Origin: Acidobacteriota bacterium
Lineage (GTDB): Bacteria > Acidobacteriota > Thermoanaerobaculia > Gp7-AA8
Reading direction: 5' to 3'
Assembly (NCBI GenBank): GCA_003223645.1
Contig: QHVT01000013.1
Span: 62,001 to 126,000, forward strand
DNA length: 64,000 bases
Part shown: positions 17,271 to 64,000 of the stretch, piece after piece
Numbering within the stretch: position 1 is the first letter of the stretch
Layout: each line of letters starts with the position of its first letter
The notes under the pieces: generated by a model
Told to the model about the DNA's origin: nothing
The model's input: the letters and a program-made list of their open reading frames with translations, nothing else
Database searches by the model: none
Translations under genes and position numbers: made by a program

Positions 17271-17347
17271 AGATGGCGGATGGCAGATGGCCCCGCCGGC
17301 CCATGCCATCCGCCATCCGCCATCCGCCATCTGCCATCTGCCATCCG
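17271..17347. repeat. Hairpin element of GGATGGC/GCCATCC words
   Basis: The left arm (17272-17290, GATGGCGGATGGCAGATGG) faces a longer right arm (17301-17346) of CCATCCGCCATCTGCC words. The same words form elements at 36190-36283 and 40555-40590. Confidence 0.85.
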
Positions 17348-17401
17348 GACTCTGGTGCGCGTGTTGCTGTGTTTCCCGCGCAGAAACAAGGAGGGCCGGA
17401 A

Positions 17402-36189: not shown

Positions 36190-36283
36190 ACCGGATGGCG
36201 GATGGCGGATGGCAGACGGCAGAAACGATGATCGCGTTCGTCGCGGCTTCTGCCATCCGCCATCTGCCATCCGCCATCGAATA
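36190..36283. repeat. Hairpin element of GGATGGC/GCCATCC words
   Basis: The left arm (36193-36222) has GGATGGCGGATGGCGGATGG; the right arm (36250-36280) has TGCCATCCGCCATCTGCC. It fills the spacer between the two permease genes, and is of the same family as 17271-17347. Confidence 0.85.
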
Positions 36284-40420: not shown

Positions 40421-40610
40421 AGCTGCGCTGATGGCGGCTGCGCCGATCGCGGCTGCGCCGGGATCGCGGCTGCGCTGATGGCAAAGCGAAGTCCGAGATT
40501 CAAGGTGCGAAGTTCGAGGTGAAAATTCTGAATTCGCCCTCGCACGTCGAACTTCGGCTTTTGCCATCCGCCATCCGCCATCTGCCATCAGCGCAGCCGC
40601 CATCCACATT
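40421..40610. repeat. Nested double hairpin element
   Basis: Outer arms GCTGCGCTGATGGC (40471-40482) and GCCATCAGCGCAGC enclose inner arms CGAAGTCCGAG...GAAGTTCGAGG and CGTCGAACTTCGGC, i.e. one element inserted in another. GCCATCC words and a GATCGCGGCTGCGC tract surround it. It fills the spacer before the CFA synthase gene, together with 40611-40729, where nothing else is seen. Confidence 0.75.
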
Positions 40611-49925: not shown

Positions 49926-51299
49926 TTACGCCGGCGGCGCCACCATCGCGAGCTGCGTATTGACGCGAATGTTGTACGGCGCGCTGAGGCCCGACTGTTC
50001 GTAGTCGGTGAACATCAGATTCACTCCCGGGCGGAAGATGAGGCAATGCGTCGAGCCGCCGAAGTGGAACATTCCGAGCTGATCGCCTTTGTCGACGTGC
50101 TGGCCCGGCTCGACGGTGATCTGACAGCTCGACACCTCGGCCATGCCGACCGGCACCACGCACATCAATCCGATCGCGGGGTTGTCCGCTTCGATGAAGA
50201 TCACCGCGCGCGTCGCGACGGACGTGAGGAAGGGCTGCGAGTTGTTGGGCGCGGAGGTATCCGCACCGGCCGGGTTGAAGAAGCCCTGGTAGATGTTTTC
50301 GAGGTAATAGGAGCCGTTGACGACGTACGCCTTCGTGATGGTGCCGCTCACCGGGCTATGCCAGCGGTGATAGCTGAGCGCACTGAGGAACGCCTGATAG
50401 ACCGTGCCGCCGTTGAACTGCGGCGCGAGCTCGTCGAAGTTGAGCATGTTCTCGAGCGAGTACGGCTGTCCCTTGAGCCAGAACAAATCGGAGAGCTTCG
50501 CGTTCTGCGTGATGCCGAGGGGCGCGGACTCGCAGGCGTTGATGATCATGTCGTCATTGGTCGGTGCGTACACCGGCCGCATGCCGTCGCGGAACGTGCG
50601 GGTGAAGAAGTCGTCCCACGACTGAAAACCGTAATAAGGATCGGCGGGATCGCAGTTGAAGATGTCGGCGAACGTCGCGTCGGGACCGACGGGATTCGGT
50701 GGCTGTCCCAATGCCTGACTGGCGACGGCAACCATCTCCGTTTGCGCGGCGGGGCTCAGCCACGCGATCGCGTCATTGTCCGGATCATTCTGAACCAGCA
50801 CATAGCGTGAATCCGCGGTGACGAGAAAGTTCGACCAGAAATTGAGGATCTTCTTGAACTGCTGATTCACGTTCGCATTCGAGAAGACGTCGTAGCCGAA
50901 GACGGTGGCCATCGGCCAGTCGAGCAAGGCATTGATGGGGAAACCGATCAAGCCGGCCGGCTGCTGATTGTCACCCGTACCCGTCTGGTAAGCCTCCGGC
51001 GCCGTGTACAGGATCTGATTGAGCAGCACCAGGAACTCTTCGAAGGTCTGCGGCTCTGGCTCCCAGCCGAGGGGCGTCGTCTGCTGGAGCCGGTACGCCT
51101 CGGCGAACATGCCCACGACGTTCGCGTGCAGGACCGGATCCGCATAGACCATCTGTTGAAATGCGACGATGGGGGCAACGAGCGGACGCGGAGACTCGAC
51201 CGCCATTTTCTTGAGCTTCCGAACCCAGTGCGTCGTTGCCTTGGGATGTTTCGGCAGCCATCCGCCGAGACGGGCGCTGCCGGCTCTCTGGAGTGTCAT
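49926..51299 (-). CDS. Phosphatidylserine-decarboxylase-family enzyme (PsiD-like layout)
   Basis: The 457-residue protein has an N-terminal helical domain (residues 1-170) followed by a PSD domain: 'SWDDFFTRTFRDGMRPV', 'YHRWHSPVSGTI', 'CVVPVGMAEVSSCQITVEPG' and the self-cleavage segment 'FHFGGSTHCLIF', where the Ser becomes the pyruvoyl group. The long N-terminus and absence of a membrane anchor match the PSD-like amino-acid decarboxylases (tryptophan decarboxylase PsiD type) better than housekeeping PSD. The substrate is unknown. GAGGTGATCC before the ATG is a good ribosome site, and its TGA is the stop of the DinB remnant upstream. Confidence 0.85.
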   Translation of the reverse strand: MTLQRAGSARLGGWLPKHPKATTHWVRKLKKMAVESPRPLVAPIVAFQQMVYADPVLHANVVGMFAEAYRLQQTTPLGWEPEPQTFEEFLVLLNQILYTAPEAYQTGTGDNQQPAGLIGFPINALLDWPMATVFGYDVFSNANVNQQFKKILNFWSNFLVTADSRYVLVQNDPDNDAIAWLSPAAQTEMVAVASQALGQPPNPVGPDATFADIFNCDPADPYYGFQSWDDFFTRTFRDGMRPVYAPTNDDMIINACESAPLGITQNAKLSDLFWLKGQPYSLENMLNFDELAPQFNGGTVYQAFLSALSYHRWHSPVSGTITKAYVVNGSYYLENIYQGFFNPAGADTSAPNNSQPFLTSVATRAVIFIEADNPAIGLMCVVPVGMAEVSSCQITVEPGQHVDKGDQLGMFHFGGSTHCLIFRPGVNLMFTDYEQSGLSAPYNIRVNTQLAMVAPPA

Positions 51300-51303
51300 C
51301 GGA

Positions 51304-51510
51304 TCACCTCGCCACAGGAGAGTCGCGGCGCGCGCAAATCCCTACCCGCGAGAAATCAGCGTGCGACCCGTAACGCTCGTGAAGCACGTCGAGGTGCTGA
51401 CGAACGTGACCCGCGGCGATCCACGTCCACTTCTTGTCGGCGTAGCGATAGCCGGCGTCTTCGTCGCGGATGGCGAGCAGCACGCGCTGCACCTCGGATC
51501 GCTGCGCGGC
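51304..51510 (-). pseudogene. DinB-family gene remnant joined to the 21-bp array
   Basis: On the minus strand the frame reads 'QRVLLAIRDEDAGYRYADKK', which is the DinB start segment ('l..~dEdagyrYapgKWt'), and runs directly into 'WIAAGHVRQHLDVLHERYG', the DinB end segment. About 100 middle residues, including most metal-binding His, are missing. Upstream the frame continues only into the array. The stop overlaps the ribosome site of the PSD-family gene, so the two were once an operon. Confidence 0.6.
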
Positions 51511-51835
51511 GACGGCATCGATGCCACGGGCGATGGCATCGATCCCACCGGCGATGGCATCGATCCCATCGGCGATGGCATTGATCCCATCAACGATGGC
51601 ATTGATCCCATCGACGATGGCATCGATCCCATCGGCGATGGCATTGATCCCATCAACGATGGCATTGATCCCATCGACGATGGCATCGATCCCATCGGCG
51701 ATGGCATTGATCCCATCAACGATGGCATTGATCCCATCGACGATGGCATCGATCCCATCAACGATGGCATTGATCCCATCGACGATGGCATCGATCCCAC
51801 CGGCGATGGCATTGATGTCCTCCAACGAGGACTCG
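51511..51835. repeat. 21-bp tandem array (array D)
   Basis: About 15 units of 21 bp ('GGCATTGATCCCATC' followed by AACGAT, GACGAT or GGCGAT) stand in tandem. All six frames stay open; one reads as DGIDPIN/D repeats. It lies between the DinB remnant and the ClC channel gene and reads into the former. 51836-51930 shows no further feature. Confidence 0.92.
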
Positions 51836-51930
51836 ATCCCATCAAATTGGGTGAGCGATCGACGGCGCGCACCGCGCCATCTCCGGTCGTCACCGGAACA
51901 ACAGCGTATCTTCCTTGCATTGCAGTCCTC

Positions 51931-53658
51931 GTGTTCGAAAAAGCCGCCGCGCGGCTGCAGTTCCTTGCCTATCGTTTTCTTCTCGTCACGCTCATCGGCG
52001 CCGGTGCGCTCACCGGTGTCGTCGCCGTGTTGTTCCATCGCTACGTCGAGCTTGCGCGCAACCAGCTGATCGGCCGCGCGCTGAGACAGCCGGAGCCGTG
52101 GCGCGTGATCTTGATGATCGTCACGCCGGCGATCATGTTCGCGCTGCTCGCGGCGCTGATCCGCCGCTTCGCGCCGCGCGCGGTGGGCGCGAACCTCGCG
52201 CGCGTGCGCATGGCGTACAACGACAACCCGCGCATCCTCGGTCCGCGCACGATCATCACGACGTTCGCGGCCACGCCGCTGTCTCTCGGCGCGGGCGCGC
52301 CGCTCGGTCCCGAAGGACCGATCGTCGTCGTGGCCAGCGGCATCTCCGTCACGCTCGCGCGTCTCCTGCGACTGCCGCAGAAGGTGGTCCGCGGCATGAT
52401 TCCGATCGGTACGGCCGCCGGCATCGCCGCGATCTTCAACACGCCGATTACCGGAGTCGTGTTCGCGCTCGAAGAGATCATCGGCACGTCGCAGCGCGGA
52501 ATCCTCGGCGGCGTTCTCGTCGGATCGGTCGCCGCGGCGGTCGTCGAGCGCGTGCTGCTCGGCGGAAGGCCGATGCTCGTCGCGCCTTCCTCGACGTGGA
52601 CGGACGTTCGCGAGATGGCCGGCTTCGCGGTCCTCGGCATCGCGGCAGGAGCGGCATCCGGTCTCGCGATCTCGCTCGCGCACCGGCTCAAACGCAAATG
52701 GTCGGCGGCGATGCCGTCGATCGTCTTGCGCGCTGCACTGGCGGGACTCTTGATCGGCGCGGCGGGATTGCTCGCGCCGGAGATCTTCGGCATCGGCTAC
52801 GACTCCGTTTCACTCTGGCTGCACGGCGGCGGTTCCGCGAGCGGCACCGGAATCGCGTTCGCGGTGAAACTGCTCGCCTTCACCGTCGCGATCAGCGGCG
52901 GCGTGATCGGCGGAACGTTTGCGCCGTCGCTGTTCATCGGGTCCGCGCTCGGCGCCGCCATCGGTCACGGGACGCAGGATTTGTTTCCGTCGATGCACAT
53001 CGATCCGAAGGCATACGCGATCGTCGGGATGGGCTCGTACTTCGCGGGCGTGATGCGCAGTCCGATCGCGGCCGTGCTGATCGTCGTCGAGCTGACGCGC
53101 GACTACGAGCTGATCGTTCCGCTGATGCTCGGCGTGTCCCTCGCGGTGGCGATCTCACGACGCATCTCGAGACTCAGCATCGTCGAACAGCAGATGGTCG
53201 ACGAAGGATGGATCGAGGAGCACGCCGCGAACGATCCGCTCGCGCGCGTCCGCGTCCGGCAGGCGATGACGACAAACGTCGTGACGATCTCGCGCGACAC
53301 GACGATCGAAGAGATCGCGCGGCTCATCGCCGGAACACGGTTCACGTTCTACCCGATCGCCGGCGACGACGGCACGCTCGCGGGCATCGCGTCGCGCAGC
53401 GCAATCGATAACGCGGTCGCGGAACATGGCGGCGAGTCGATCATGACGATCGCCGAGGAGCCGAAGGTCGTGGCGTGTGCGGAGGATCTCATCACCGAGA
53501 CCGTGCAGCAGATGCATTTGCGCGGCGTCGATCGCTGTCCGGTCGTGGAGTCCGCGCGCGCGCCGCGCATCGTCGGCTTTCTCAGCCCCTCCGACATTCT
53601 TCGCATGCGCATGCGCAGCGGGACGGCGGAGCCGGACCCGTTCGAACTGATCGAGTGA
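51931..53658 (+). CDS. ClC chloride channel/transporter with CBS pair
   Basis: The 575-residue membrane protein has the ClC core: 'GAGAPLGPEGPIV' (GxEGP with the gating Glu), 'AAIFNTPITGVVFALEE', 'GGVIGGTFAPSLFIGSALGA' (GxFxP) and 'GMGSYFAGVMRSPIAAVLIVVELT'. Residues about 435-560 are two CBS domains ('VRQAMTTNVVTISRDTTIEEI ... TFYPIAGDDGTLAGIASRSAI', 'VDRCPVVESARAPRIVGFL') that sense adenine nucleotides. GTG 51931 starts the first helix; the frame upstream is only array D. It moves chloride, possibly against protons. Confidence 0.9.
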   Translation: MFEKAAARLQFLAYRFLLVTLIGAGALTGVVAVLFHRYVELARNQLIGRALRQPEPWRVILMIVTPAIMFALLAALIRRFAPRAVGANLARVRMAYNDNPRILGPRTIITTFAATPLSLGAGAPLGPEGPIVVVASGISVTLARLLRLPQKVVRGMIPIGTAAGIAAIFNTPITGVVFALEEIIGTSQRGILGGVLVGSVAAAVVERVLLGGRPMLVAPSSTWTDVREMAGFAVLGIAAGAASGLAISLAHRLKRKWSAAMPSIVLRAALAGLLIGAAGLLAPEIFGIGYDSVSLWLHGGGSASGTGIAFAVKLLAFTVAISGGVIGGTFAPSLFIGSALGAAIGHGTQDLFPSMHIDPKAYAIVGMGSYFAGVMRSPIAAVLIVVELTRDYELIVPLMLGVSLAVAISRRISRLSIVEQQMVDEGWIEEHAANDPLARVRVRQAMTTNVVTISRDTTIEEIARLIAGTRFTFYPIAGDDGTLAGIASRSAIDNAVAEHGGESIMTIAEEPKVVACAEDLITETVQQMHLRGVDRCPVVESARAPRIVGFLSPSDILRMRMRSGTAEPDPFELIE

Positions 53659-53876: not shown

Positions 53877-56800
53877 ATGATCGGCTGTTCTGGGAGGTGC
53901 GAATTGAGCGGACGTCACGCCCTCGTTCTGGGAATCTGTCTTCTGTTCGCCGCGGTCGACGTACATGCGCAGCAGTGCACGCGCACCGTGAAGGCGGATG
54001 TCGTCGCGATCGATCAGGCGTACTTCATCAATCGTCTCGGCACCGCGCGCCCCGGAGGGTTGCTCTTCGCGCTGCGCAGCGACGTCGAGTCGACGGATGC
54101 CGCGAATTCCGCGTTGCAGCCGGGGCGCGTGCAGTTGAAGTCGTACAAACGTCCGCGGCCCTTCGTGCTGCGCGCGAATGTCGGCGACTGCGTCGACATC
54201 AAGTTCCAGAACCTCCTCGCCAACAATCCCACCGATCCCGTGCAGCCGATGACGCGCAACGTGTCGCTGCACATCACCGGCATGTCCTTGCGCGAGTCGA
54301 TCGCCAGCGACGGCATGTGGGTCGGACAGAATCCTCCCGGCGCGACAGGCATGAGCGGCGACGTCGCGCCCGGCGCCTCGATCACCTACAAGTTGTATGC
54401 GAGCGCGGAAGGATCGTTCCTCATTTACTCGCAGCCGGGAGACTTCAACAACTTCGGCACGCAGCAGCTGACGATGGGACTCTTCGGCGCGCTGAACGTC
54501 GAGCCGGCGGGCGCGGAGTGGTATCGCAGTCAGGTCACGCAGTCCGATCTCGCGATGGCGACGAACGGTTCGTTCCCTGACGGACATCCGAAGATCAACT
54601 ACGACGCCGTTTATCCGCCGGGAAATCCGCGCGCGGGCAAGCCGATCCTGCGCATGCTCGACGCCGACAACAACGTCGCCCACAGCGATCTCACCGCCGT
54701 CATCACCGGTCCGCATCACGGACTCTTTCCCGGCGACGGCGGCAACAATCCGATCCTTCCGAATCGCAACTGGCCGTTCCGCGAAGTGACCGTCCACTAC
54801 CACGAGTCGCAGGACGTCGTGCAGGCGTGGGCGTACTTTTATCCGCAGAACAGCGGCGTCACCGCACACGTGCCGACCGTCAACGCCGGCTCCGACAGCT
54901 TCGCGATCAACTACGGACTCGGGGGCATCGCTCCCGAGATTTTGTCGAATCGCATTCGCATCGGTCCGTCCGCCGATTGTCCCGAATGCAAGTTCGAAGA
55001 GTTCTTCCTGAGCTCGTGGCCGCAGGGCGATCCCGGCATCGTGGTCGATGTCCCCGCGAACGCCGAGGTCTCGACGCCGTGTCAGTTCGACGCGCAGTTC
55101 CTCGGCGCGCCGTCCCTCGGCGGCGTGAGCCGTCCGTGCATGGAGTCGCGCAAACTCCCGACGAAGGCGTTCTATCCCGACGATCCGTCGAACGTCTATC
55201 ACTCCTACCTCGGCGATCACGTTCGCTTCCGCATCCTGCACGCCGGCGCGGCGGTCACGCACGTGCATCACCATCACGCGCATCAGTGGCTGCATTCGGG
55301 CACGGACCAGGACAGCAACTATCTCGACAGCCAGTCGATCGGGCCGGGTGCGTCGTTCACGCTCGAGCTGGTGTACGACGGCAGCGGCAATCGCAACCTC
55401 ACCGCCGGCGACTCGATCTTCCACTGCCACTTCTATCCGCACTTCGCGTCCGGCATGTGGGCGCTCTTCCGCGTGCACGACGTCTTCGAAGCGGGCACGC
55501 AGCTCGACGACGCGCAGCGCGCCGCATCCGGCGCGCGCGCGCTTCCCGATCCCGAGATCAAGACCGGCACGCCGATTCCCGCGATCGTTCCGCTGCCGAA
55601 CATGCCGATGGCGCCGCTGCCGTCGAAGGTCGAGATCGTCGACGGAAAGGTGAAGCTCGACGGCGACGGGTTCCCCGGCTATCCGTTCTACATCCCCGGC
55701 ATCCCCGGACATCGCGCGCCGCATCCGCCGCTGGACTTCGCCGTCGATCCGAAAACGAACGAGGCGTACGACGGAGGTCTGCCGCGCCATCTGATCACGG
55801 GCGCGGTCGTCTCCAACGAACAGCACACGCTCACCGATTGGAGCAAAGACCTGTCGAGCATCACCGCCTTCCAACTGCCGGAAGACGGCACGCCATCGGA
55901 GAAGCTGGCGATGTCGTTCTTCGGACAGCACCTGCATCCGAGCTACACGCAAAACGGCGCGGCGCAGCCGTTCAAGGTGAACGGACTGCCGCGCGGTCCG
56001 CAACACGGCGCGCCGTTCGCCGATCCGGCGGTCGACGACGGAAACGCAGTGGGGACCGAGGTACCGCCTTACCGAGGTGTCGATTTACAGGTCGATGCCG
56101 TCTTCAACAAGGCGGGATGGCACTATCCGCAGCAGCGCATGATGGCGCTCTGGCAGGACGTGAACGACTTCGTCACGAACAAGCGTCCGCCGGAGCCGCT
56201 GTTCTTCCGCGCCGCGGCGAACGACGTCATTGAGTACTGGCACACGAATCTCGTGCCGGCATACTTCGAGCTCGACGACTTCGAGGTCCGCACACCCACC
56301 GACATCCTCGGGCAGCACATCCACCTCGTGAAGTTCGATGTCACGTCATCCGACGGCGCAGCGAACGGCTTCAACTACGAAGACGGGACGTTCAGCCCGG
56401 AAGAAGTGCGCGTGCGGATCGATGCGATCAACGCGTCGGGCGGATTGTGGAACTACGCCAGGACGTCGCAGACGAAGCTCGCGCCGAAGACGATCGCCGA
56501 GCTCGGAAAAGGACCGGGCGAGCAGTGGGTGGGTGCACAAGCAACGGTGCAGCGCTGGTGGGTCGATCCGCTCATCGACACGCAGGGCACCGACCGCACC
56601 TACATGACGGTCTTTACGCACGATCACTTCGGACCGTCGACGCACCAGATGGTCGGCTTGTACGGCGGACTCCTCGTCGAGCCGCCGAACACGAAGTGGA
56701 CGTCGCTCGATGGCAAGACGCTCTTCCGCGACTGGACGAAACGCAATGACGGCGGACCGACGAGCTACGCCGCGAACATCCTCTACAAAAACGACGACCT

Positions 56801-59384
56801 GAAGAGACCGGCGAGCTATCGCGAGTTCGGCCTCCTCTGGGGCGACATGCAGTTCGTGTACAACTCCACGAGCCGCTCGCAGCCCGACTGCTATCCCGGC
56901 CAGACCTACAACTGTCTGCCCGTCGCGGACGGCGCGTCGTATCAAGGGTGGTCGGTGGTGAATGCGGCGAACGCGAATCCGGCGCCGCCGGTGCCGCAGA
57001 ACCCGATGCTCACCTGTTTTCAAAACTGCACGCCGCCCGCGGGCGCGCCGATCAGTCAGGCGACGCCGACGTATCCGGCGACGCCGTCGCCGTTCCTCAT
57101 CGGCGACTTCGGCGGCGCGTCGATCTCGATGAACTACCGCACCGAGCCGCTGCCGCTCCGCATCAGCGACGCAAACTGGAACCAGGCCGCCGGAACTGCG
57201 GGCGATCTCGCGTACGCGTTCGCGTCGATCCCGCGCGCGAACCCCGCGTTCAGCGTGCAGCCGGCAGGCGGATCGAAGATCAACTCCGCGTGCAGCGGCA
57301 GCTCCTGCTTCACCTTCCCGCAGGATCCGATCTCCGGCGGCATGCAGGCCACCGATCCGTACACGCCGCTCCTCGCCGGATACGAAGGCGACAACGTGCA
57401 GATCCGCCTCCTCTCCGGATCGCACACGTCGATGCACGACTTCAACATGCACGGACTGCGCTGGCTGTATCAGCCGTTCTCGACGAACTCCGGCTATCGC
57501 AACACGCAGTTCATCATTTTGTCCGAGCACTTCGAGACGTTGTTCCAGTTGCCGCAGATCAATGCGCAGGTCGCGGCCGACTATCTCTACAACCCGACCG
57601 CGTCCTACGAAGGATTGACGAACGGCATCTGGGGAATCCTGCGCTCGTTCAATCCGAGCCAACAACAAACGTTCCTCGCGCCGATCCGCACGGCGGTCGC
57701 AGCTCCAGCCGCGCCGCAACCGGTGGCGAACGCGAACTGCATATTGCCGCAGTCGTGCACGCGCAACTTCGAAGTGCACGTGAAGGTGGTGCCGCAGAAT
57801 GGTCTCGTCTACAACTCGCGCGGAATGAACCTCGCCGGCGGAGCGGGCACGAGTCCGCCGTTCGTCGATCCGTTCGCGATCGTCTACACGCTCGGCAATC
57901 AGCCGGTGAATCCCGCGACCGTGCAGCCGCTCGTCCTGCGCGCGCGCGCCGGCGACTGGATCCACGTCACGCTCGTCAACGATCTCACCGGCAACGAGCC
58001 GGTGTTCAATCCGTCGAACGCCGAATTCGCGAGCCGCTTCCAGCAGGTCCCGTACGCGTATCCGTACGCCGTGCAATTCAATCCGTCCGCGAGCGCGGGA
58101 CTGCACGCGCAGCTCGTCGACTACAACGTGACGACGAGCGACGGCGCGAACGTCGGCAACAATCCCGCGCAGACCGCGAAGCCGAACGGCGGCACCGCGG
58201 AGTATTGGTGGTACGCCGGGAAGATCGAAGGCAATACAGCGACGCCGGTCGAATTCGGCGCGGTGAACCTACTGCCGGCCGATCCGCTGATGCAGGTCTA
58301 TCACGGACTGTTCGGCGCGCTGGTGATCGAGCCGCAGGGATCGCGTTGGGTCGAAGACCCGCAGTCGCCCGCGTCAGCGACGGTGTTCAACGGCAACAAC
58401 GTCTACCGCGAGTTCGTGCTGATGGTGCAGGACGACGTGTCGATGTACGTGAACCAGCTGCCGTTCTACGCGGCGAACCCGCTGTCGGCAGTCAACTACA
58501 AAACCGAAGCCGCGGTCGGACGATACGGCGCGCTGCTGAACGGCGCGCTCGGACTCGCCGCGCCTCCGAACTGGACGAACCTTTCGTTGGCGGATCTGAA
58601 GTCCGCGTCGAACGTGCTTTGGTCGTCGGTCGACACGACGAAGATGACGGCGAACCAGCTCGTCGCCGGCGATCCGCAGACTCCGATCCTGCGTGCGCCC
58701 GCGGGCATGCCGGTGCGCATCCACACGCTCTCGCCCGGCGGCATCGGCGACAACCAGCAGTCGTTCGAGCTGACGGGACACGTCTGGCAGGAGACGCCGT
58801 ACACGAATGACTCCACGAAGATCGGCTACAACTCGAAGTCGTACTTCAGCGGATTGATCACCGGACTCGGACCGACTGCCGGATATCCGCTCGTCCTCGA
58901 GAACACGCCCGACGGCGGCGGCACGCCGGCCGGCGGCAAGTTCCGCATCGCCGGCGACTATCTGTATCGCAGCTGGATGGCGAATCAGTTCGACTCCGGA
59001 ATCTGGGGCATCTTCCGCGTCGCGCCGGCGACGGCGGGAGCGGGATTCCCCGACACCGTCGGCATCACGTCGATCAAACAGAACGGCACGAGCGGATATA
59101 CGGTCAGTGGATTCACGACCGTGTCGCCGCAGAACGGCAAATACGCCGCCTCCGTGACCTTCTCGTTCGGCGGGAAGGCGTCGGTGTCGAACGGATTGTG
59201 GAGTTACAGCGGTCGCGGCAACGCGCCGTCGTCCTTCACCGTGCGCTCGCCTCTCGGCGGCATCGCGACGTGGGGAGTCGAGAGCGTGCGACCGCTGGCG
59301 ATGGCGATGGAAGCCAAAGCGCCCGCGCCGATGCGCAGCGAGCCCGCGGTGCGGAAGGAGAAGAAGCCACGGCAACCGAAATGA
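53877..59384 (+). CDS. Giant secreted multicopper oxidase
   Basis: The 1835-residue product has a signal peptide ('HALVLGICLLFAAVDVHAQ') and a chain of cupredoxin-like domains. Copper ligands are visible as 'HVHHHHAHQW' (about residue 460), 'FHCHFYPHFASGMW' (about 515, the HCH-x3-H-x4-M motif joining type 1 and type 3 copper), 'FTHDHFGPSTHQ' (about 913), 'HTSMHDFNMHGLRW' (about 1182) and 'YHGLFGALVIEPQG' (about 1474). Usual laccases have 500-600 residues; large ones of the manganese-oxidase type (MnxG) have about 1200. It probably oxidises metal ions or organic substrates outside the cell. The stop overlaps the ATG of the next gene. Confidence 0.88.
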   Translation: MIGCSGRCELSGRHALVLGICLLFAAVDVHAQQCTRTVKADVVAIDQAYFINRLGTARPGGLLFALRSDVESTDAANSALQPGRVQLKSYKRPRPFVLRANVGDCVDIKFQNLLANNPTDPVQPMTRNVSLHITGMSLRESIASDGMWVGQNPPGATGMSGDVAPGASITYKLYASAEGSFLIYSQPGDFNNFGTQQLTMGLFGALNVEPAGAEWYRSQVTQSDLAMATNGSFPDGHPKINYDAVYPPGNPRAGKPILRMLDADNNVAHSDLTAVITGPHHGLFPGDGGNNPILPNRNWPFREVTVHYHESQDVVQAWAYFYPQNSGVTAHVPTVNAGSDSFAINYGLGGIAPEILSNRIRIGPSADCPECKFEEFFLSSWPQGDPGIVVDVPANAEVSTPCQFDAQFLGAPSLGGVSRPCMESRKLPTKAFYPDDPSNVYHSYLGDHVRFRILHAGAAVTHVHHHHAHQWLHSGTDQDSNYLDSQSIGPGASFTLELVYDGSGNRNLTAGDSIFHCHFYPHFASGMWALFRVHDVFEAGTQLDDAQRAASGARALPDPEIKTGTPIPAIVPLPNMPMAPLPSKVEIVDGKVKLDGDGFPGYPFYIPGIPGHRAPHPPLDFAVDPKTNEAYDGGLPRHLITGAVVSNEQHTLTDWSKDLSSITAFQLPEDGTPSEKLAMSFFGQHLHPSYTQNGAAQPFKVNGLPRGPQHGAPFADPAVDDGNAVGTEVPPYRGVDLQVDAVFNKAGWHYPQQRMMALWQDVNDFVTNKRPPEPLFFRAAANDVIEYWHTNLVPAYFELDDFEVRTPTDILGQHIHLVKFDVTSSDGAANGFNYEDGTFSPEEVRVRIDAINASGGLWNYARTSQTKLAPKTIAELGKGPGEQWVGAQATVQRWWVDPLIDTQGTDRTYMTVFTHDHFGPSTHQMVGLYGGLLVEPPNTKWTSLDGKTLFRDWTKRNDGGPTSYAANILYKNDDLKRPASYREFGLLWGDMQFVYNSTSRSQPDCYPGQTYNCLPVADGASYQGWSVVNAANANPAPPVPQNPMLTCFQNCTPPAGAPISQATPTYPATPSPFLIGDFGGASISMNYRTEPLPLRISDANWNQAAGTAGDLAYAFASIPRANPAFSVQPAGGSKINSACSGSSCFTFPQDPISGGMQATDPYTPLLAGYEGDNVQIRLLSGSHTSMHDFNMHGLRWLYQPFSTNSGYRNTQFIILSEHFETLFQLPQINAQVAADYLYNPTASYEGLTNGIWGILRSFNPSQQQTFLAPIRTAVAAPAAPQPVANANCILPQSCTRNFEVHVKVVPQNGLVYNSRGMNLAGGAGTSPPFVDPFAIVYTLGNQPVNPATVQPLVLRARAGDWIHVTLVNDLTGNEPVFNPSNAEFASRFQQVPYAYPYAVQFNPSASAGLHAQLVDYNVTTSDGANVGNNPAQTAKPNGGTAEYWWYAGKIEGNTATPVEFGAVNLLPADPLMQVYHGLFGALVIEPQGSRWVEDPQSPASATVFNGNNVYREFVLMVQDDVSMYVNQLPFYAANPLSAVNYKTEAAVGRYGALLNGALGLAAPPNWTNLSLADLKSASNVLWSSVDTTKMTANQLVAGDPQTPILRAPAGMPVRIHTLSPGGIGDNQQSFELTGHVWQETPYTNDSTKIGYNSKSYFSGLITGLGPTAGYPLVLENTPDGGGTPAGGKFRIAGDYLYRSWMANQFDSGIWGIFRVAPATAGAGFPDTVGITSIKQNGTSGYTVSGFTTVSPQNGKYAASVTFSFGGKASVSNGLWSYSGRGNAPSSFTVRSPLGGIATWGVESVRPLAMAMEAKAPAPMRSEPAVRKEKKPRQPK

Positions 59385-61141
59385 AGCGACTCGCTTGCGC
59401 TCTCGCTCTCGCGCTGCCGCTCGCGGCGCAGACGAATGTCGATCGCGGCATCGCGGTCCAGCTCGCTGTCTCGCCGCATGTCCTGCATGATGGAGATACC
59501 ATCCAGGTCCAATTTTCCCTCCGCGATGAAGCGACGAAGACGCCGCTGACGGGCGCGCATCCGGCCGCATGGCTCGCGCCGCGCACACGCGACTGCACCG
59601 CCAACGTCGCCCGCTTCCTGGGCGGCTCGATCGCCGATCGCGCGCCGGTCGACTTCAACAACTACTACGTCCTCGCGCTCAACGACGACGCGTCGATCAG
59701 CGTCGTCGACCCCCGCTTCAGCTTCGGCGGATCGCAGCTGCTCGCGATGATCCCCCTCGAGAGCCGCGGCGAAGACTGGGCGCTCGACGGCAACACGCTC
59801 TATGTCACGGAGCCCGCCGCCGGAAAAGTCGCAGTCATCGACACGACGACCTGGAAAGTCCGCGCGACCGTCAACGCGCCGCACGCCATGCGCGTGCAAG
59901 TGCACGACGCGCACGCGTGGATCGTTGGCGACGAGATCCTCGTGCTCGACGGCGACCGCGTGATCACGCGCATGCCCGGGAAAGAGATCGCGTTCGATGA
60001 CGCGCATACGGCATTCGTGATGAACGAGGACGGTGTGATTCGAGTTGACACGCGTGCGCTGTCGCCCCGCGGCGAGGAGAGCGGGCGTCCCGCCCGCCCC
60101 CGGGAGGCAGGCAAGATGCCCGCTCTCCTCGCCTGGTCCTCCTCCGCCCAAATGCTCTATGCCGCCGATCCCGACAGCGGCCGCGTCGTCGCAATCCGTC
60201 GCGGAAAAATCGCCGCCACCATCAACGCCACTTCCGGCTTCACGCAGCTCCGCTTCTCCGGCCGATTCGGCTTCCTCCCGAATCCGAAGAACAACATCGT
60301 CGAGATCATCGACGCCGCATCGAATCGCATCGTGCAGACCGCCGATGTTCCCGACGCTCCCGATCAGGTCACGTTCACGTCGACGCTCGCGTACATCCGC
60401 CGCCGCGGCAGCGACAGCGTGATGATGATTCCGCTGCAGAACGTCGGCGTGTCGGATGCGATCGGCGTCGCCGACTTCACCGGCGGGCAGCACGCGCTCG
60501 GCGCGGGGAAATTCGGCGCGCTTGCCGACTCGATCGTCGAAGCGCCCGACGGTCCCGCGGTGCTCGTCGCGAATCCGGCTGATCGCTCGATCTACTACTA
60601 CAAGGAAGGCATGGCCGCGCCGATGGGCGGCTTCAACAACGGCTCGCGCGAGCCGCGCGCCGTGCTCGTCGTCGATCGCAGCCTGCGCGAGAAATCGAAC
60701 GGCGTCTACGCGACGTCCGCGGTCGTCGAAGACGCCGGCAAGTACGACGTCGTCTTCTTCCTCGACTCGCCGCGCGTCGTCAGCTGCTTCCCGCTCGAAG
60801 TCGCCGAGCGTCCCGAAACGACCGCCAAGCGCGAGCACGCCGTCATCGTCGAGTCGCTCGCACCCGTCGTCGCCGCGCGCGCCGGCGCGCCCGCGCAACT
60901 CCGCTTCCGCATCACCGACGTTTCCACGCATCAAACGCGCGCCGCCGGCGAAGTCGAGATCGTCGTCATGGAGGCGCCCGGAGTCTGGCAACGCCGCACG
61001 ACCGCGATGCCGTCGCAGGACGGCACCTATGCGATCGAAATCACCCCGCCGTCGGCCGGGACGTACTACGCCTGGATTGCCTCAGCCGCCGCCGGACTCC
61101 CGATCAACAACCCCTATTTCATTCGGTTCGAGGTGGACTGA
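59381..61141 (+). CDS. Secreted beta-propeller protein of the oxidase operon
   Basis: The 586-residue product has a signal peptide ('MKRLACALALALPLAAQ') and a beta-propeller of YVTN/cytochrome-D1 type ('NNYYVLALNDDASISVVDPR', 'GNTLYVTEPAAGKVAVIDTT', 'QMLYAADPDSGRVVAIRRGK', 'NNIVEIIDAASNRIVQTADV'), then a C-terminal Ig-like domain. No heme-binding motif is seen. A hairpin element is translated in frame at residues about 230-251. It overlaps the multicopper-oxidase gene by four bases and the next gene by one, so the three are translationally coupled. It may be a scaffold or docking partner for the oxidases. Confidence 0.85.
   Translation: MKRLACALALALPLAAQTNVDRGIAVQLAVSPHVLHDGDTIQVQFSLRDEATKTPLTGAHPAAWLAPRTRDCTANVARFLGGSIADRAPVDFNNYYVLALNDDASISVVDPRFSFGGSQLLAMIPLESRGEDWALDGNTLYVTEPAAGKVAVIDTTTWKVRATVNAPHAMRVQVHDAHAWIVGDEILVLDGDRVITRMPGKEIAFDDAHTAFVMNEDGVIRVDTRALSPRGEESGRPARPREAGKMPALLAWSSSAQMLYAADPDSGRVVAIRRGKIAATINATSGFTQLRFSGRFGFLPNPKNNIVEIIDAASNRIVQTADVPDAPDQVTFTSTLAYIRRRGSDSVMMIPLQNVGVSDAIGVADFTGGQHALGAGKFGALADSIVEAPDGPAVLVANPADRSIYYYKEGMAAPMGGFNNGSREPRAVLVVDRSLREKSNGVYATSAVVEDAGKYDVVFFLDSPRVVSCFPLEVAERPETTAKREHAVIVESLAPVVAARAGAPAQLRFRITDVSTHQTRAAGEVEIVVMEAPGVWQRRTTAMPSQDGTYAIEITPPSAGTYYAWIASAAAGLPINNPYFIRFEVD
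60071..60132. repeat. Hairpin element inside the beta-propeller gene
   Basis: GGCGAGGAGAGCGGGCGTCC (left) and GATGCCCGCTCTCCTCGCC (right) form the stem. It reads in frame as 'GEESGRPARPREAGKMPALL'. Intergenic relatives are at 13866-13922 and 37503-37557. Confidence 0.88.
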
Positions 61142-64000
61142 TGGCAACGGCCCGCAGGAAGAAGAAGCAGAAGGAGACACAGGAGAAGCCGATGAGCGAT
61201 GACAACACGAAAAAGCCTTTCGATCCAAATGACGTTGCGTACTGCAAGATCCATCCGGGAATCGGCATCGCTCGCGTCGGCGACAGTCTTGACGGATTCT
61301 TCATCGGGCCGGAAACGCCGGGCGAGATGGTGCATCCCGTCGGCGGATTCAAGGACGAGCACGGCCGCATCAAACGCCAGGCCGCGCGCTTCCGCGTCTA
61401 CGCGTACAACGCGGCTGGCGAAGCGATCTACGAGCTCACCGCAAATGACGCCGACATTAACTGGAGCGTCCAGCTCGCGAACAAGAAGGCGAGCTATCGC
61501 ATCTTCCTCGGCCGTTACTGGGACATTCAGTATCCCGACGTGAAGAAATACGCCGACGAGCACTTCGGCGGACAGCCGCCGATGCGCAATCAGGAAGTGA
61601 GCGTGAACGATCCCGAACAGCGCTCGCAGCTCCTCGACATCCGTCCCGAGGCGCGCACGATCGGCGGGAGAAACGAGAAGGGCACCAAGTACGAGCTGAC
61701 CGGCTCGTTCGGTCCGCTCAAATATACCGTCGCCAGCGCAGACGTCACGATCGACGGCAAGGACGTCTCCAATCAGAATGTACTGCTCGGAACCCGCAGC
61801 GGCTTCATGAACGTGCCGTTCGTCGATCCGACGCAGCCCGACCTCACCAAGCAGTTTCAGGAGGCGGCGAAGCAGTACAAATGGGTGCCCGGCGTGATGC
61901 AGGAGCCGATCGCGGAATCGGGCTCGGCGCAGGTCTACCTCGGCGAGCTGCGCACCGACGCCCACGGACGTCTCCTCGTCCTCGGCGGCCGCGGCGAGTC
62001 GCGCTCGCTCATCCCCGACAACGACGTCGGCTTCCTCAACAACGACGACTACTTCGGCAGCAACGACTATTGGTATGACGACGTCAGCGACGGCGTCGTG
62101 GGCGCCGAGGTCACGTTGAAGGACGGACGCCGCGTCGAAGTGAAAGCGAAGTCGTGGGTGCTCTGCGTGCCGCCGAAGTTCGCGCCCGACTTCGAGTGCC
62201 TCACCACGCTGAAGGATCAGAGCGATCAGGTCGCGCAGAACAAAGGTCAGATTCCCGCGCAGACCGAAGTCTCCTTCAAGGATGACATCTATCCGATTCT
62301 TCTCCGCCTCAATCACTACCAGTGGGTGAACCAGTTCGCGCTGCAGCAGCACGGCAACGGCATGGTCTTCGATCCGCTGAGCCAGGGACCGGGAACCGCG
62401 AACATCTTCCCGAAGCTCCACGAAAAGAGCGGGAAGGACGGCGGCACGGATGCCAACGCCGAGATGCGCATGCACGTCTTCAAACGCATGCGCAAACCGA
62501 TTGCGGTGCTGCAGGCCGAACATCCCGACATGCCGTTCGATGAGTTGATCGTTTCGCCGTACGCGGACGAACAGTCCGGCATGGCCAAGATGCCGCAGAT
62601 GTGGGGCGACGGCGGCGACGGTCTCGATCCGGTCGGCAAGGTCCTGGAGGATCCGACCGAGCAGACCAATCCCGGCCAGGGCATTCCCGGCGGCACGTAC
62701 GTCACCTGGGCCACGCTCACGCAGCGGCAATACAACGCGATGCGCTTGTGGGCCGAAGGTAAATTTGTTGACGATTGGCCGCACGGACGCAGTCCGCTCG
62801 ATGCGCCGAAGTCGCTTCCGACCGCAAAGTTGCCGATCAAAGAGCAGCCGGTGTCACTCGACAACGCCGCGATGCTGCCGTGCGTCGGCGCGCCGTTCTT
62901 CCCCGGCATCGAGCTCACGTACATCTGCGAAAACTCCGACTTCTGGGCCGAGCTCGGACGTCCCGACTGGCGCAACATGGAGCCGGGCGACGTGATCCGT
63001 CACATGGCGCTCCCGTGGCAGGCCGACTTCTCGGAATGCAATCACCGCTGGTGGCCGGTTGCGCGTCCCGACGACATCGTGACCGAGGCGCAATACGAGG
63101 ACGTCCTTCGGAACTACGACCCGACACTCGACGGTCCGCTGCAGGCCGTCCTCGCCGGCCGCACCGAGTGGGCGCGCGGCATCCCGCAGGTTTCGCCTGG
63201 CCTCGACAACGGCATGGTCGCGCACTGGAGCGAGTTCGGCTTCATCGTGCCGCGCACGGTCCACGGTGACACCGTCTACGTCGAAACGGATCGCGATCCG
63301 TACGCCGGCTGCTCGGAGCGCGACGCGTTCTATTACCTGATGAACATCGCCGACTATCCGGCCTTCGAGCCGCATGCGAGGCTGATGGTCGAGCAGTACC
63401 TCGCACAGGCGCGGCAGAACGCCAGCGATCCGCAGACCGTGAATCTCTTCGGCATGTACGGCTGGAACTACTTCCAGTACACGCCGGAAGCGTTCGACGC
63501 GCGCATGCAGGACATCTACAACCAATACGTCCTCGCCAACGCCAACGCGAGCTATCTGTCGAACACCACCTACGAGTACCAGCGTTACCTGCAGATCCAG
63601 CTCGCGCCGTTCAATCAGCTCGACGGCACGTGGATTCGCCAGGCCGGACCTCCGGGAACGGTCGACCAGGTGCGCAATCTTCTTTTCCAGATCTACATGG
63701 ATGAACTGGGCGACGCGATCGTCGAGCACAACCATGCAAACGTCTACACCGACACCTTGCACAACCTGAATTTCTATCCGTACGACATGCAGACCCGCGA
63801 CTACGCGAACGACTCGCGGTTCCTCGACTCCGCGTTCACGGAGCCGGTGTTCCTGTTGGCGATCTCCAACTTCACCGAGGACTATCTGCCGGAGATTCTC
63901 GGCATGACGCTGTATCTCGAATGGTCGTCAGTCGGTCTCGCGATCACCGTCGCTACGCTCGAGTCCCTCGGCATGGATCCGTCGTACTACCGGCTGCACG
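61141..64000 (+). CDS. LodA-like quinoprotein fused to heme-oxygenase-like diiron domain (3' end outside window)
   Basis: At least 953 residues, open at the window edge. Residues about 25-720 are a LodA-family oxidase: 'KIHPGIGIARVGDS', 'DGFFIGPETPG', 'PCVGAPFFPGIEL' (Cys581) and 'ADFSECNHRWWPVARPD' (Trp637/638), where Cys and Trp could form the cysteine-tryptophylquinone of LodA/GoxA. From about 735 a different domain begins: 'MDELGDAIVEHNHANVYTDT' (Glu855, His863/865, His874) and 'AISNFTEDYLPEILGMTLYL' with Glu918/927, the ligand pattern of heme-oxygenase-like diiron oxidases. LodA alone has about 726 residues. No signal peptide is seen; a LodB-type flavoprotein would be expected downstream. 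Confidence 0.85.
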   Translation, partial: MATARRKKKQKETQEKPMSDDNTKKPFDPNDVAYCKIHPGIGIARVGDSLDGFFIGPETPGEMVHPVGGFKDEHGRIKRQAARFRVYAYNAAGEAIYELTANDADINWSVQLANKKASYRIFLGRYWDIQYPDVKKYADEHFGGQPPMRNQEVSVNDPEQRSQLLDIRPEARTIGGRNEKGTKYELTGSFGPLKYTVASADVTIDGKDVSNQNVLLGTRSGFMNVPFVDPTQPDLTKQFQEAAKQYKWVPGVMQEPIAESGSAQVYLGELRTDAHGRLLVLGGRGESRSLIPDNDVGFLNNDDYFGSNDYWYDDVSDGVVGAEVTLKDGRRVEVKAKSWVLCVPPKFAPDFECLTTLKDQSDQVAQNKGQIPAQTEVSFKDDIYPILLRLNHYQWVNQFALQQHGNGMVFDPLSQGPGTANIFPKLHEKSGKDGGTDANAEMRMHVFKRMRKPIAVLQAEHPDMPFDELIVSPYADEQSGMAKMPQMWGDGGDGLDPVGKVLEDPTEQTNPGQGIPGGTYVTWATLTQRQYNAMRLWAEGKFVDDWPHGRSPLDAPKSLPTAKLPIKEQPVSLDNAAMLPCVGAPFFPGIELTYICENSDFWAELGRPDWRNMEPGDVIRHMALPWQADFSECNHRWWPVARPDDIVTEAQYEDVLRNYDPTLDGPLQAVLAGRTEWARGIPQVSPGLDNGMVAHWSEFGFIVPRTVHGDTVYVETDRDPYAGCSERDAFYYLMNIADYPAFEPHARLMVEQYLAQARQNASDPQTVNLFGMYGWNYFQYTPEAFDARMQDIYNQYVLANANASYLSNTTYEYQRYLQIQLAPFNQLDGTWIRQAGPPGTVDQVRNLLFQIYMDELGDAIVEHNHANVYTDTLHNLNFYPYDMQTRDYANDSRFLDSAFTEPVFLLAISNFTEDYLPEILGMTLYLEWSSVGLAITVATLESLGMDPSYYRLH

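What the first reader, a model, noticed from the sequence alone, without database searches (positions are those of the whole stretch)
53877..64000. Three overlapping genes: giant multicopper oxidase, beta-propeller and a LodA/diiron-oxidase fusion
Seen: the three genes overlap by 4 and 1 bases, so they are made together. Known: LodA-type quinoproteins oxidise amino acids with a Cys-Trp quinone and yield H2O2; multicopper oxidases reduce O2 to water; heme-oxygenase-like diiron proteins oxidise small substrates. Inference: the unit is an undescribed oxidase system in which several redox centres act on one peptide or metal substrate. The combination in one operon is, to my knowledge, not described.
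Basis: partly seen in the sequence, partly recalled or inferred. Interest (0 to 1): 0.75.

Follow-up and report, generated by a model that had tools for sequence, protein, structure and literature searches.

The report
Mn-oxidase operon with amine-oxidising insert
A known type of bacterial manganese-oxidase gene set has here, and in a few distant bacteria, gained a fused enzyme with two intact oxygen-using catalytic sites, its maturation factor and (nearby) a PsiD-like amino-acid decarboxylase, which suggests an uncharacterised amine-oxidising pathway coupled to metal oxidation.

Summary
The genes are real. A (53877-59384) is a giant MnxG-family multicopper oxidase. B (59381-61141) is a propeller. 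C (61141 to 65067, past the window end) is a 1308-aa LodA-HDO fusion. Downstream follow D (LodB maturase) and E (SCO1-cytochrome c). A, B and E are the known Pseudomonas putida mnxG (Mn(II)-oxidase) operon; LodA-pfam14518 fusions were listed in 2015. New here is the combination: C+D inserted between B and E, plus a PsiD-like decarboxylase (49926-51299, minus strand). C inside the MCO cluster occurs in four genomes (own, Massilia frigida, a second genome of that family, an Acidobacteriaceae MAG), all four carrying the decarboxylase; D+E are seen in three (MAG contig ends). Other giant-MCO loci lack C; the four MCOs form one clade (100/100). Both catalytic sites of C are intact: CTQ residues D629/C633/W638 and HDO ligands are invariant in ten fusions. 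The HDO model matches N-oxygenases RohS, HrmI and SznF (Z about 22). Best reading: a cytosolic amino acid-to-amine-to-oxidised/N-oxygenated product branch coupled to an exported metal-oxidising MCO. The chemistry is inferred, not shown.

The parts
49926..51299 (-). PsiD-like pyruvoyl-type amino-acid decarboxylase (PSDC + PS_Dcarbxylase domains), 457 aa, self-cleavage motif FGGSTHC; upstream of A and pointing away from it
   Evidence: Pfam PF12588 E=7e-33 and PF02666 E=9e-40; PDB match to PsiD-like 9jer E=7e-69 and PsiD 8x4q E=4e-64; full-length homologues at 50-54% identity in all four genomes with C inside the MCO cluster, beside the MCO in three
51169..53658 (+). ClC-type chloride channel with CBS domains, between the decarboxylase and A; listed as neighbour only, no homologue found in the other clusters; its first codons overlap the decarboxylase start, so its true start is probably further in
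   Evidence: Pfam Voltage_CLC E=5e-76; no homologue among the loci held
53877..59384 (+). A: giant MnxG-family multicopper oxidase, 1835 aa, N-terminal signal peptide by inspection, all four copper motifs
   Evidence: NCBIfam NF041487 E=0, 1067 bits, below the 3100 cut-off; PDB 9bxa MnxG E=1.8e-87; H462, H465, H467, H516, C517, H518, H522, H814, H816, H915, H917 invariant in 22 sequences
59381..61141 (+). B: exported beta-propeller protein with an Ig/YtkA-like C-terminal part, 586 aa
   Evidence: weak propeller and YtkA/filamin hits; homologue beside the MCO in nearly all loci held; matches the YVTN propeller of the mnxG operon (PMC11409713 Table 4)
61141..64000 (+). C: LodA/GoxA-type CTQ oxidase domain (about residues 30-720) fused to a heme-oxygenase-like dimetal N-oxygenase-like domain (about 725-1107) and a C-terminal part; 1308 aa, runs past the window to the equivalent of 65067. 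It is followed by D, a LodB-like maturase (65064-66089), and E, SCO1-SenC + cytochrome c (66073-67392), both outside the window
   Evidence: Pfam; LodB NF038171 E=1.6e-73 and SCO1/cytochrome c; site residues; HDO model and fold match

Best explanation
This is an mnxG-type operon (exported giant multicopper oxidase, propeller, SCO copper chaperone, cytochrome c) that has acquired a second oxidative module: a LodA-HDO fusion (C) with its LodB maturase (D), accompanied by a PsiD-like decarboxylase. Most likely working: LodB, a flavin monooxygenase, helps turn Cys633/Trp638 of C into cysteine tryptophylquinone (CTQ). The decarboxylase makes an amine, probably aromatic, from an amino acid. The LodA domain oxidises the amine (or an amino acid) to an aldehyde with NH3 and H2O2, and the fused dimetal domain N-oxygenates the same or a related amine. 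This happens in the cytosol. The exported MCO, metallated by SCO, oxidises Mn(II) or a related metal outside with O2. A small diffusible product (for example an N-hydroxylated metal ligand) or H2O2 links the two. Shown here: gene content, intact catalytic residues, shared occurrence, one clade. Inferred: every substrate, the order of steps, the compartments and the link.
For: A, B and E match the P. putida mnxG operon gene for gene (PMC11409713 Table 4). Copper ligands invariant in 22 MCOs. CTQ residues aligned with LodA D512/C516/W581 and GoxA and invariant in 10 fusions. LodB adjacent. HDO ligands E855, H865, E927 (and E918), H953, D957, H963 invariant, also in two homologues without LodA. 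HDO model pLDDT 84.6 best matches N-oxygenases RohS, HrmI and SznF, Z 19-22.5, against 18 or less for other heme-oxygenase-like families; HrmI's structure holds N6-hydroxylysine. PsiD-like decarboxylase in 4 of 4 C+MCO genomes, in 0 of 19 genomes with only the MCO or only the fusion at comparable strength, and in 3 of the other 395 phylum genomes. The four MCOs are one clade, 100/100.
Against: The MCO is far from the characterised MnxG proteins (1067 bits against a 3100 cut-off), so Mn(II) as its substrate is not shown. C+D works as a unit without any MCO elsewhere. The decarboxylase points away from A and is on another contig in the MAG. Only about three independent lineages carry the full set; Massilia frigida and G1064 are close relatives.
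Confidence: 0.45

Rival explanations
1. The MCO of this clade has changed substrate: decarboxylase, LodA-HDO fusion and MCO together make an oxidised aromatic-amine product such as a pigment or antimicrobial, and no metal is oxidised.
For: The decarboxylase goes with C in the four MCO clusters and not with the other MCOs tested; the MCO clade sits on a distinct branch; other LodA operons carry tyrosinase and a small MCO (PMC4417212), and the Paraburkholderia fusion lies about 7 kb from a tyrosinase and a SCO gene.
Against: The metal-oxidase core genes (propeller, SCO, cytochrome c) and all copper ligands are kept; A is exported while the amine enzymes appear not to be.
Confidence: 0.25
2. Independent neighbours: the C+D pair is a stand-alone H2O2-producing amino-acid oxidase of the antimicrobial kind that merely travels with the Mn-oxidase operon.
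For: C+D occurs alone in Streptomyces and on a Paraburkholderia plasmid, and a copy of C sits elsewhere in the same genome without the MCO.
Against: Overlapping genes in one transcriptional order, the same insertion place between B and the SCO gene in distant phyla, and a shared decarboxylase.
Confidence: 0.2
3. C modifies the MCO or the propeller itself, for example by oxidising lysine side chains, as a maturation factor.
For: Close coupling of the genes.
Against: C+D exists without this MCO; the other giant MCOs do without C; C lacks an export signal.
Confidence: 0.08

Closest known systems
mnxG operon of Pseudomonas putida GB-1 (MnxG Mn(II) oxidase)
   Same: giant MCO, YVTN propeller, SCO1/SenC, ABC-binding/cytochrome c protein in the same order (PMC11409713 Table 4)
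   Different: here SCO and cytochrome c are fused in one protein, C+D sit between propeller and SCO, a PsiD-like decarboxylase is next door, and the MCO scores far below the MnxG cut-off
LodA-pfam14518 fusion proteins (Campillo-Brocal et al. 2015, PMC4417212 Table 3)
   Same: LodA family plus iron-containing redox enzyme domain, with a LodB-like gene nearby
   Different: here the HDO domain is C-terminal (the paper says N-terminal) and the gene lies inside an mnxG-type operon, which the paper does not mention
LodA and GoxA, CTQ-dependent lysine and glycine oxidases
   Same: CTQ residues and LodB/GoxB-type maturase
   Different: 1308 aa against about 700; well below the equivalog cut-offs (280 of 750 bits for GoxA, 173 of 600 for LodA); substrate unknown
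HDO N-oxygenases SznF, HrmI, RohS
   Same: fold and metal ligands
   Different: 11-16% identity; three extra residues between Asp957 and His963; fused to a quinoprotein
PsiD, L-tryptophan decarboxylase of psilocybin biosynthesis
   Same: PSDC plus pyruvoyl-type decarboxylase domains and cleavage motif
   Different: bacterial, in another gene context; substrate unknown

Membership tests
mnxG-type Mn(II)-oxidase operon | giant MCO with all copper ligands | tested here: met
   11 ligand positions invariant in 22; MnxG profile E=0
mnxG-type Mn(II)-oxidase operon | propeller, SCO and cytochrome c genes alongside | tested here: met
   and PMC11409713 Table 4
mnxG-type Mn(II)-oxidase operon | MnxG at equivalog level | tested here: not met
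   1067 bits against a cut-off of 3100; the other loci scored here also fall below it, 758-2183. So 'MnxG-family', not 'MnxG'
mnxG-type Mn(II)-oxidase operon | oxidises Mn(II) | not testable with these tools
   needs enzyme or mutant
LodA/GoxA CTQ oxidases | Cys and Trp of CTQ and catalytic Asp | tested here: met
   D629, C633, W638 invariant in 10 fusions and aligned with LodA 512/516/581
LodA/GoxA CTQ oxidases | LodB-type maturase adjacent | tested here: met
   E=1.6e-73; below the LodB cut-off (248 of 400 bits)
LodA/GoxA CTQ oxidases | membership of the named LodA or GoxA equivalogs | tested here: not met
   278 of 750 bits and 170 of 600 bits
HDO (heme-oxygenase-like dimetal oxygenases) | fold | tested here: met
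   model pLDDT 84.6; Z 19-22.5 with RohS, HrmI, SznF; Pfam PF14518 E=8e-17
HDO (heme-oxygenase-like dimetal oxygenases) | three His and three carboxylates at the metal site | tested here: met
   E855, H865, E927 (or E918), H953, D957, H963 invariant; the assignment of E927 rests on the SznF alignment and my memory of the SznF ligand numbers
HDO N-oxygenases | N-oxygenation of an amine | not testable with these tools
   inferred from fold neighbours only
PsiD-like decarboxylases | PSDC N-terminal domain and GGS-type self-cleavage motif | tested here: met

The most novel reading that the evidence does not exclude
A previously unrecognised multi-enzyme oxidative pathway (pyruvoyl decarboxylase, CTQ oxidase fused to an N-oxygenase, LodB, giant MCO) makes an N-oxygenated amine product, for example a Mn(III) or copper ligand, that works with a giant multicopper oxidase in metal oxidation.
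Probability: 0.25. Interest if true: 0.8.

Novelty: new variant of a known kind. Interest (0 to 1): 0.55.

Why it matters
Why bacteria oxidise Mn(II) is a long-open question. A clade of MnxG-type oxidases that carries its own amine-oxidising and N-oxygenating enzyme plus a decarboxylase would tie Mn oxidation to a specific small molecule, and it can be tested in a culturable host (Massilia frigida). The fused protein would also be a natural pairing of a CTQ quinoprotein with a dimetal oxygenase, for which I found no characterised example in the papers searched.

Tried and rejected
AlphaFold2 of residues 28-1215 of C failed (pLDDT 46), so the distance between the two active sites is unknown. 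The one genome-contig scan used only two peptide patterns, so named relatives are incomplete. Paper search for MnxG together with LodA gave none; a search of LodA with diiron/heme-oxygenase-like terms gave no paper on the fusion; the library holds only CC-licensed papers. The idea that C is truncated or lacks the cofactor residues was rejected. A direct maturase role of C on the MCO was thought unlikely (C+D without MCO). Upstream of A I looked by eye for a sigma-54 site like that of P. putida mnxG and saw none; not a formal test. My simple gene caller is unreliable in high-GC Streptomyces loci, so their neighbourhoods were not interpreted. The PsiD-like result rests on about three independent lineages and one query; no formal test was made.

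Full report
Observation. The three genes are there with the stated overlaps. B starts at 59381, not at 59198. C is cut by the window; in the genome it is 1308 aa, and D (LodB-like) and E (SCO1-SenC plus cytochrome c) follow with overlaps, so at least five genes form the unit.

What the core is. A is best matched by the MnxG family of Mn(II)-oxidising multicopper oxidases and by the solved Bacillus MnxG. The P. putida GB-1 mnxG operon is mnxG, YVTN propeller, SCO1, SCO1, ABC-binding/cytochrome c protein, SurA (PMC11409713, Table 4). A, B and E are this set. I collected giant-MCO loci from 9 of 396 Acidobacteriota genomes and from 7 of 369 genomes of the class of Massilia frigida, plus two plasmids. 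Nearly all have the propeller next to the MCO and most have SCO or cytochrome c genes, with no LodA between. All copper ligand positions of A are invariant in 22 sequences.

What is inserted. C has LodA_N, LodA_C and a Haem_oxygenas_2 domain. Alignment to LodA puts D629, C633 and W638 on D512, C516 and W581; all three are invariant in ten fusions. The dimetal ligand candidates are invariant in the same ten and in two homologues without a LodA part. The model of this domain matches the N-oxygenases RohS, HrmI and SznF best (Z 19-22.5), ahead of FlcD (18), CADD (15), PqqC (14) and UndA (13.5), and a profile of it finds SznF first. LodA-pfam14518 fusions were reported in 2015 as five proteins of unknown function, and LodA operons with small multicopper oxidases and tyrosinases were noted there too (PMC4417212). 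So neither half is new; their place in an mnxG-type operon is.

Co-occurrence. C with the giant MCO and propeller was found in four genomes: the window's, Massilia frigida (L025), a second genome of that family (G1064, L087) and an Acidobacteriaceae MAG (L026/L090). D and E follow in the first three; in the MAG the contig ends after C. C+D without the MCO occurs in Streptomyces, on a Paraburkholderia plasmid and in a second copy in M. frigida. A paralogue of C without neighbours of this kind is on another contig of the window's genome. In random samples the combination is rare: of the 9 phylum genomes with a giant MCO only the window's has the fusion beside it, and of the 7 class genomes only M. 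frigida. The four MCOs form one clade with full support; the C proteins of the clusters group with the paralogue, 100/100. A single acquisition followed by transfer between phyla is the simplest reading (inference).

The decarboxylase. The gene at 49926-51299 (minus strand) is a PsiD-like decarboxylase with the FGGSTHC cleavage motif conserved in all four. Full-length homologues (50-54%) occur in all four C+MCO genomes, beside the MCO in three and on another contig in the MAG; none of the 14 MCO genomes without the fusion and none of the 5 genomes with the fusion alone has one of comparable strength. In the phylum 3 of 395 other genomes have a match at E<=1e-40, all weaker. This is suggestive, but two of the four genomes are close relatives and the window was the query.

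Mechanism. A, B and E begin with export signals, C, D and the decarboxylase do not (read from the sequences; no signal-peptide program was run; LodA itself is known to me as secreted, so this is weak). I therefore propose two compartments: a cytosolic amino acid to amine to oxidised or N-oxygenated product branch, and an exported metal-oxidising MCO, joined by a diffusible product or H2O2. The roles of the domains follow from their families (LodA: CTQ oxidation of amines with H2O2; LodB: flavin-dependent CTQ formation; HDO N-oxygenases; PsiD). Substrates are unknown. Rivals are listed with their tests.

Limits. The fold of the whole fusion could not be predicted. The distribution of the combination is sampled, not exhaustive. 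E927 as metal ligand is taken from the SznF alignment; the SznF ligand numbers are from memory.

Noticed in passing
window 17272-17352, 36194-36278, 40556-40589; L003 16109-16178: A palindromic element built of GGCGGAT/GGCAGAT heptads. The core GGCGGATGGCAGATGG has 149 exact copies in the genome and 0 for the reversed control; one copy lies inside the 5' part of gene E.
   Followed up: partly
window 51510-51816: The ClC channel gene carries 14.6 copies of a 21-bp repeat (GDGIDP-type heptads) in its N-terminal part.
   Followed up: no
L005 9669-13484: A second LodA-HDO fusion, 54% identical to C, in the same genome without LodB or MCO beside it; it would need a LodB in trans.
   Followed up: partly
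L099 5736-7688: G1064 has a further LodA-like gene with a LodB-like gene about 6 kb from its decarboxylase, outside the cluster.
   Followed up: no
L094 9998-22563: On a Paraburkholderia caribensis plasmid the fusion and LodB lie after an S53 peptidase and about 7 kb from a tyrosinase and a SCO-family gene.
   Followed up: partly
L090 4254-6132: In the Acidobacteriaceae MAG gene B is split in two frames; assembly error or frameshift not resolved.
   Followed up: no
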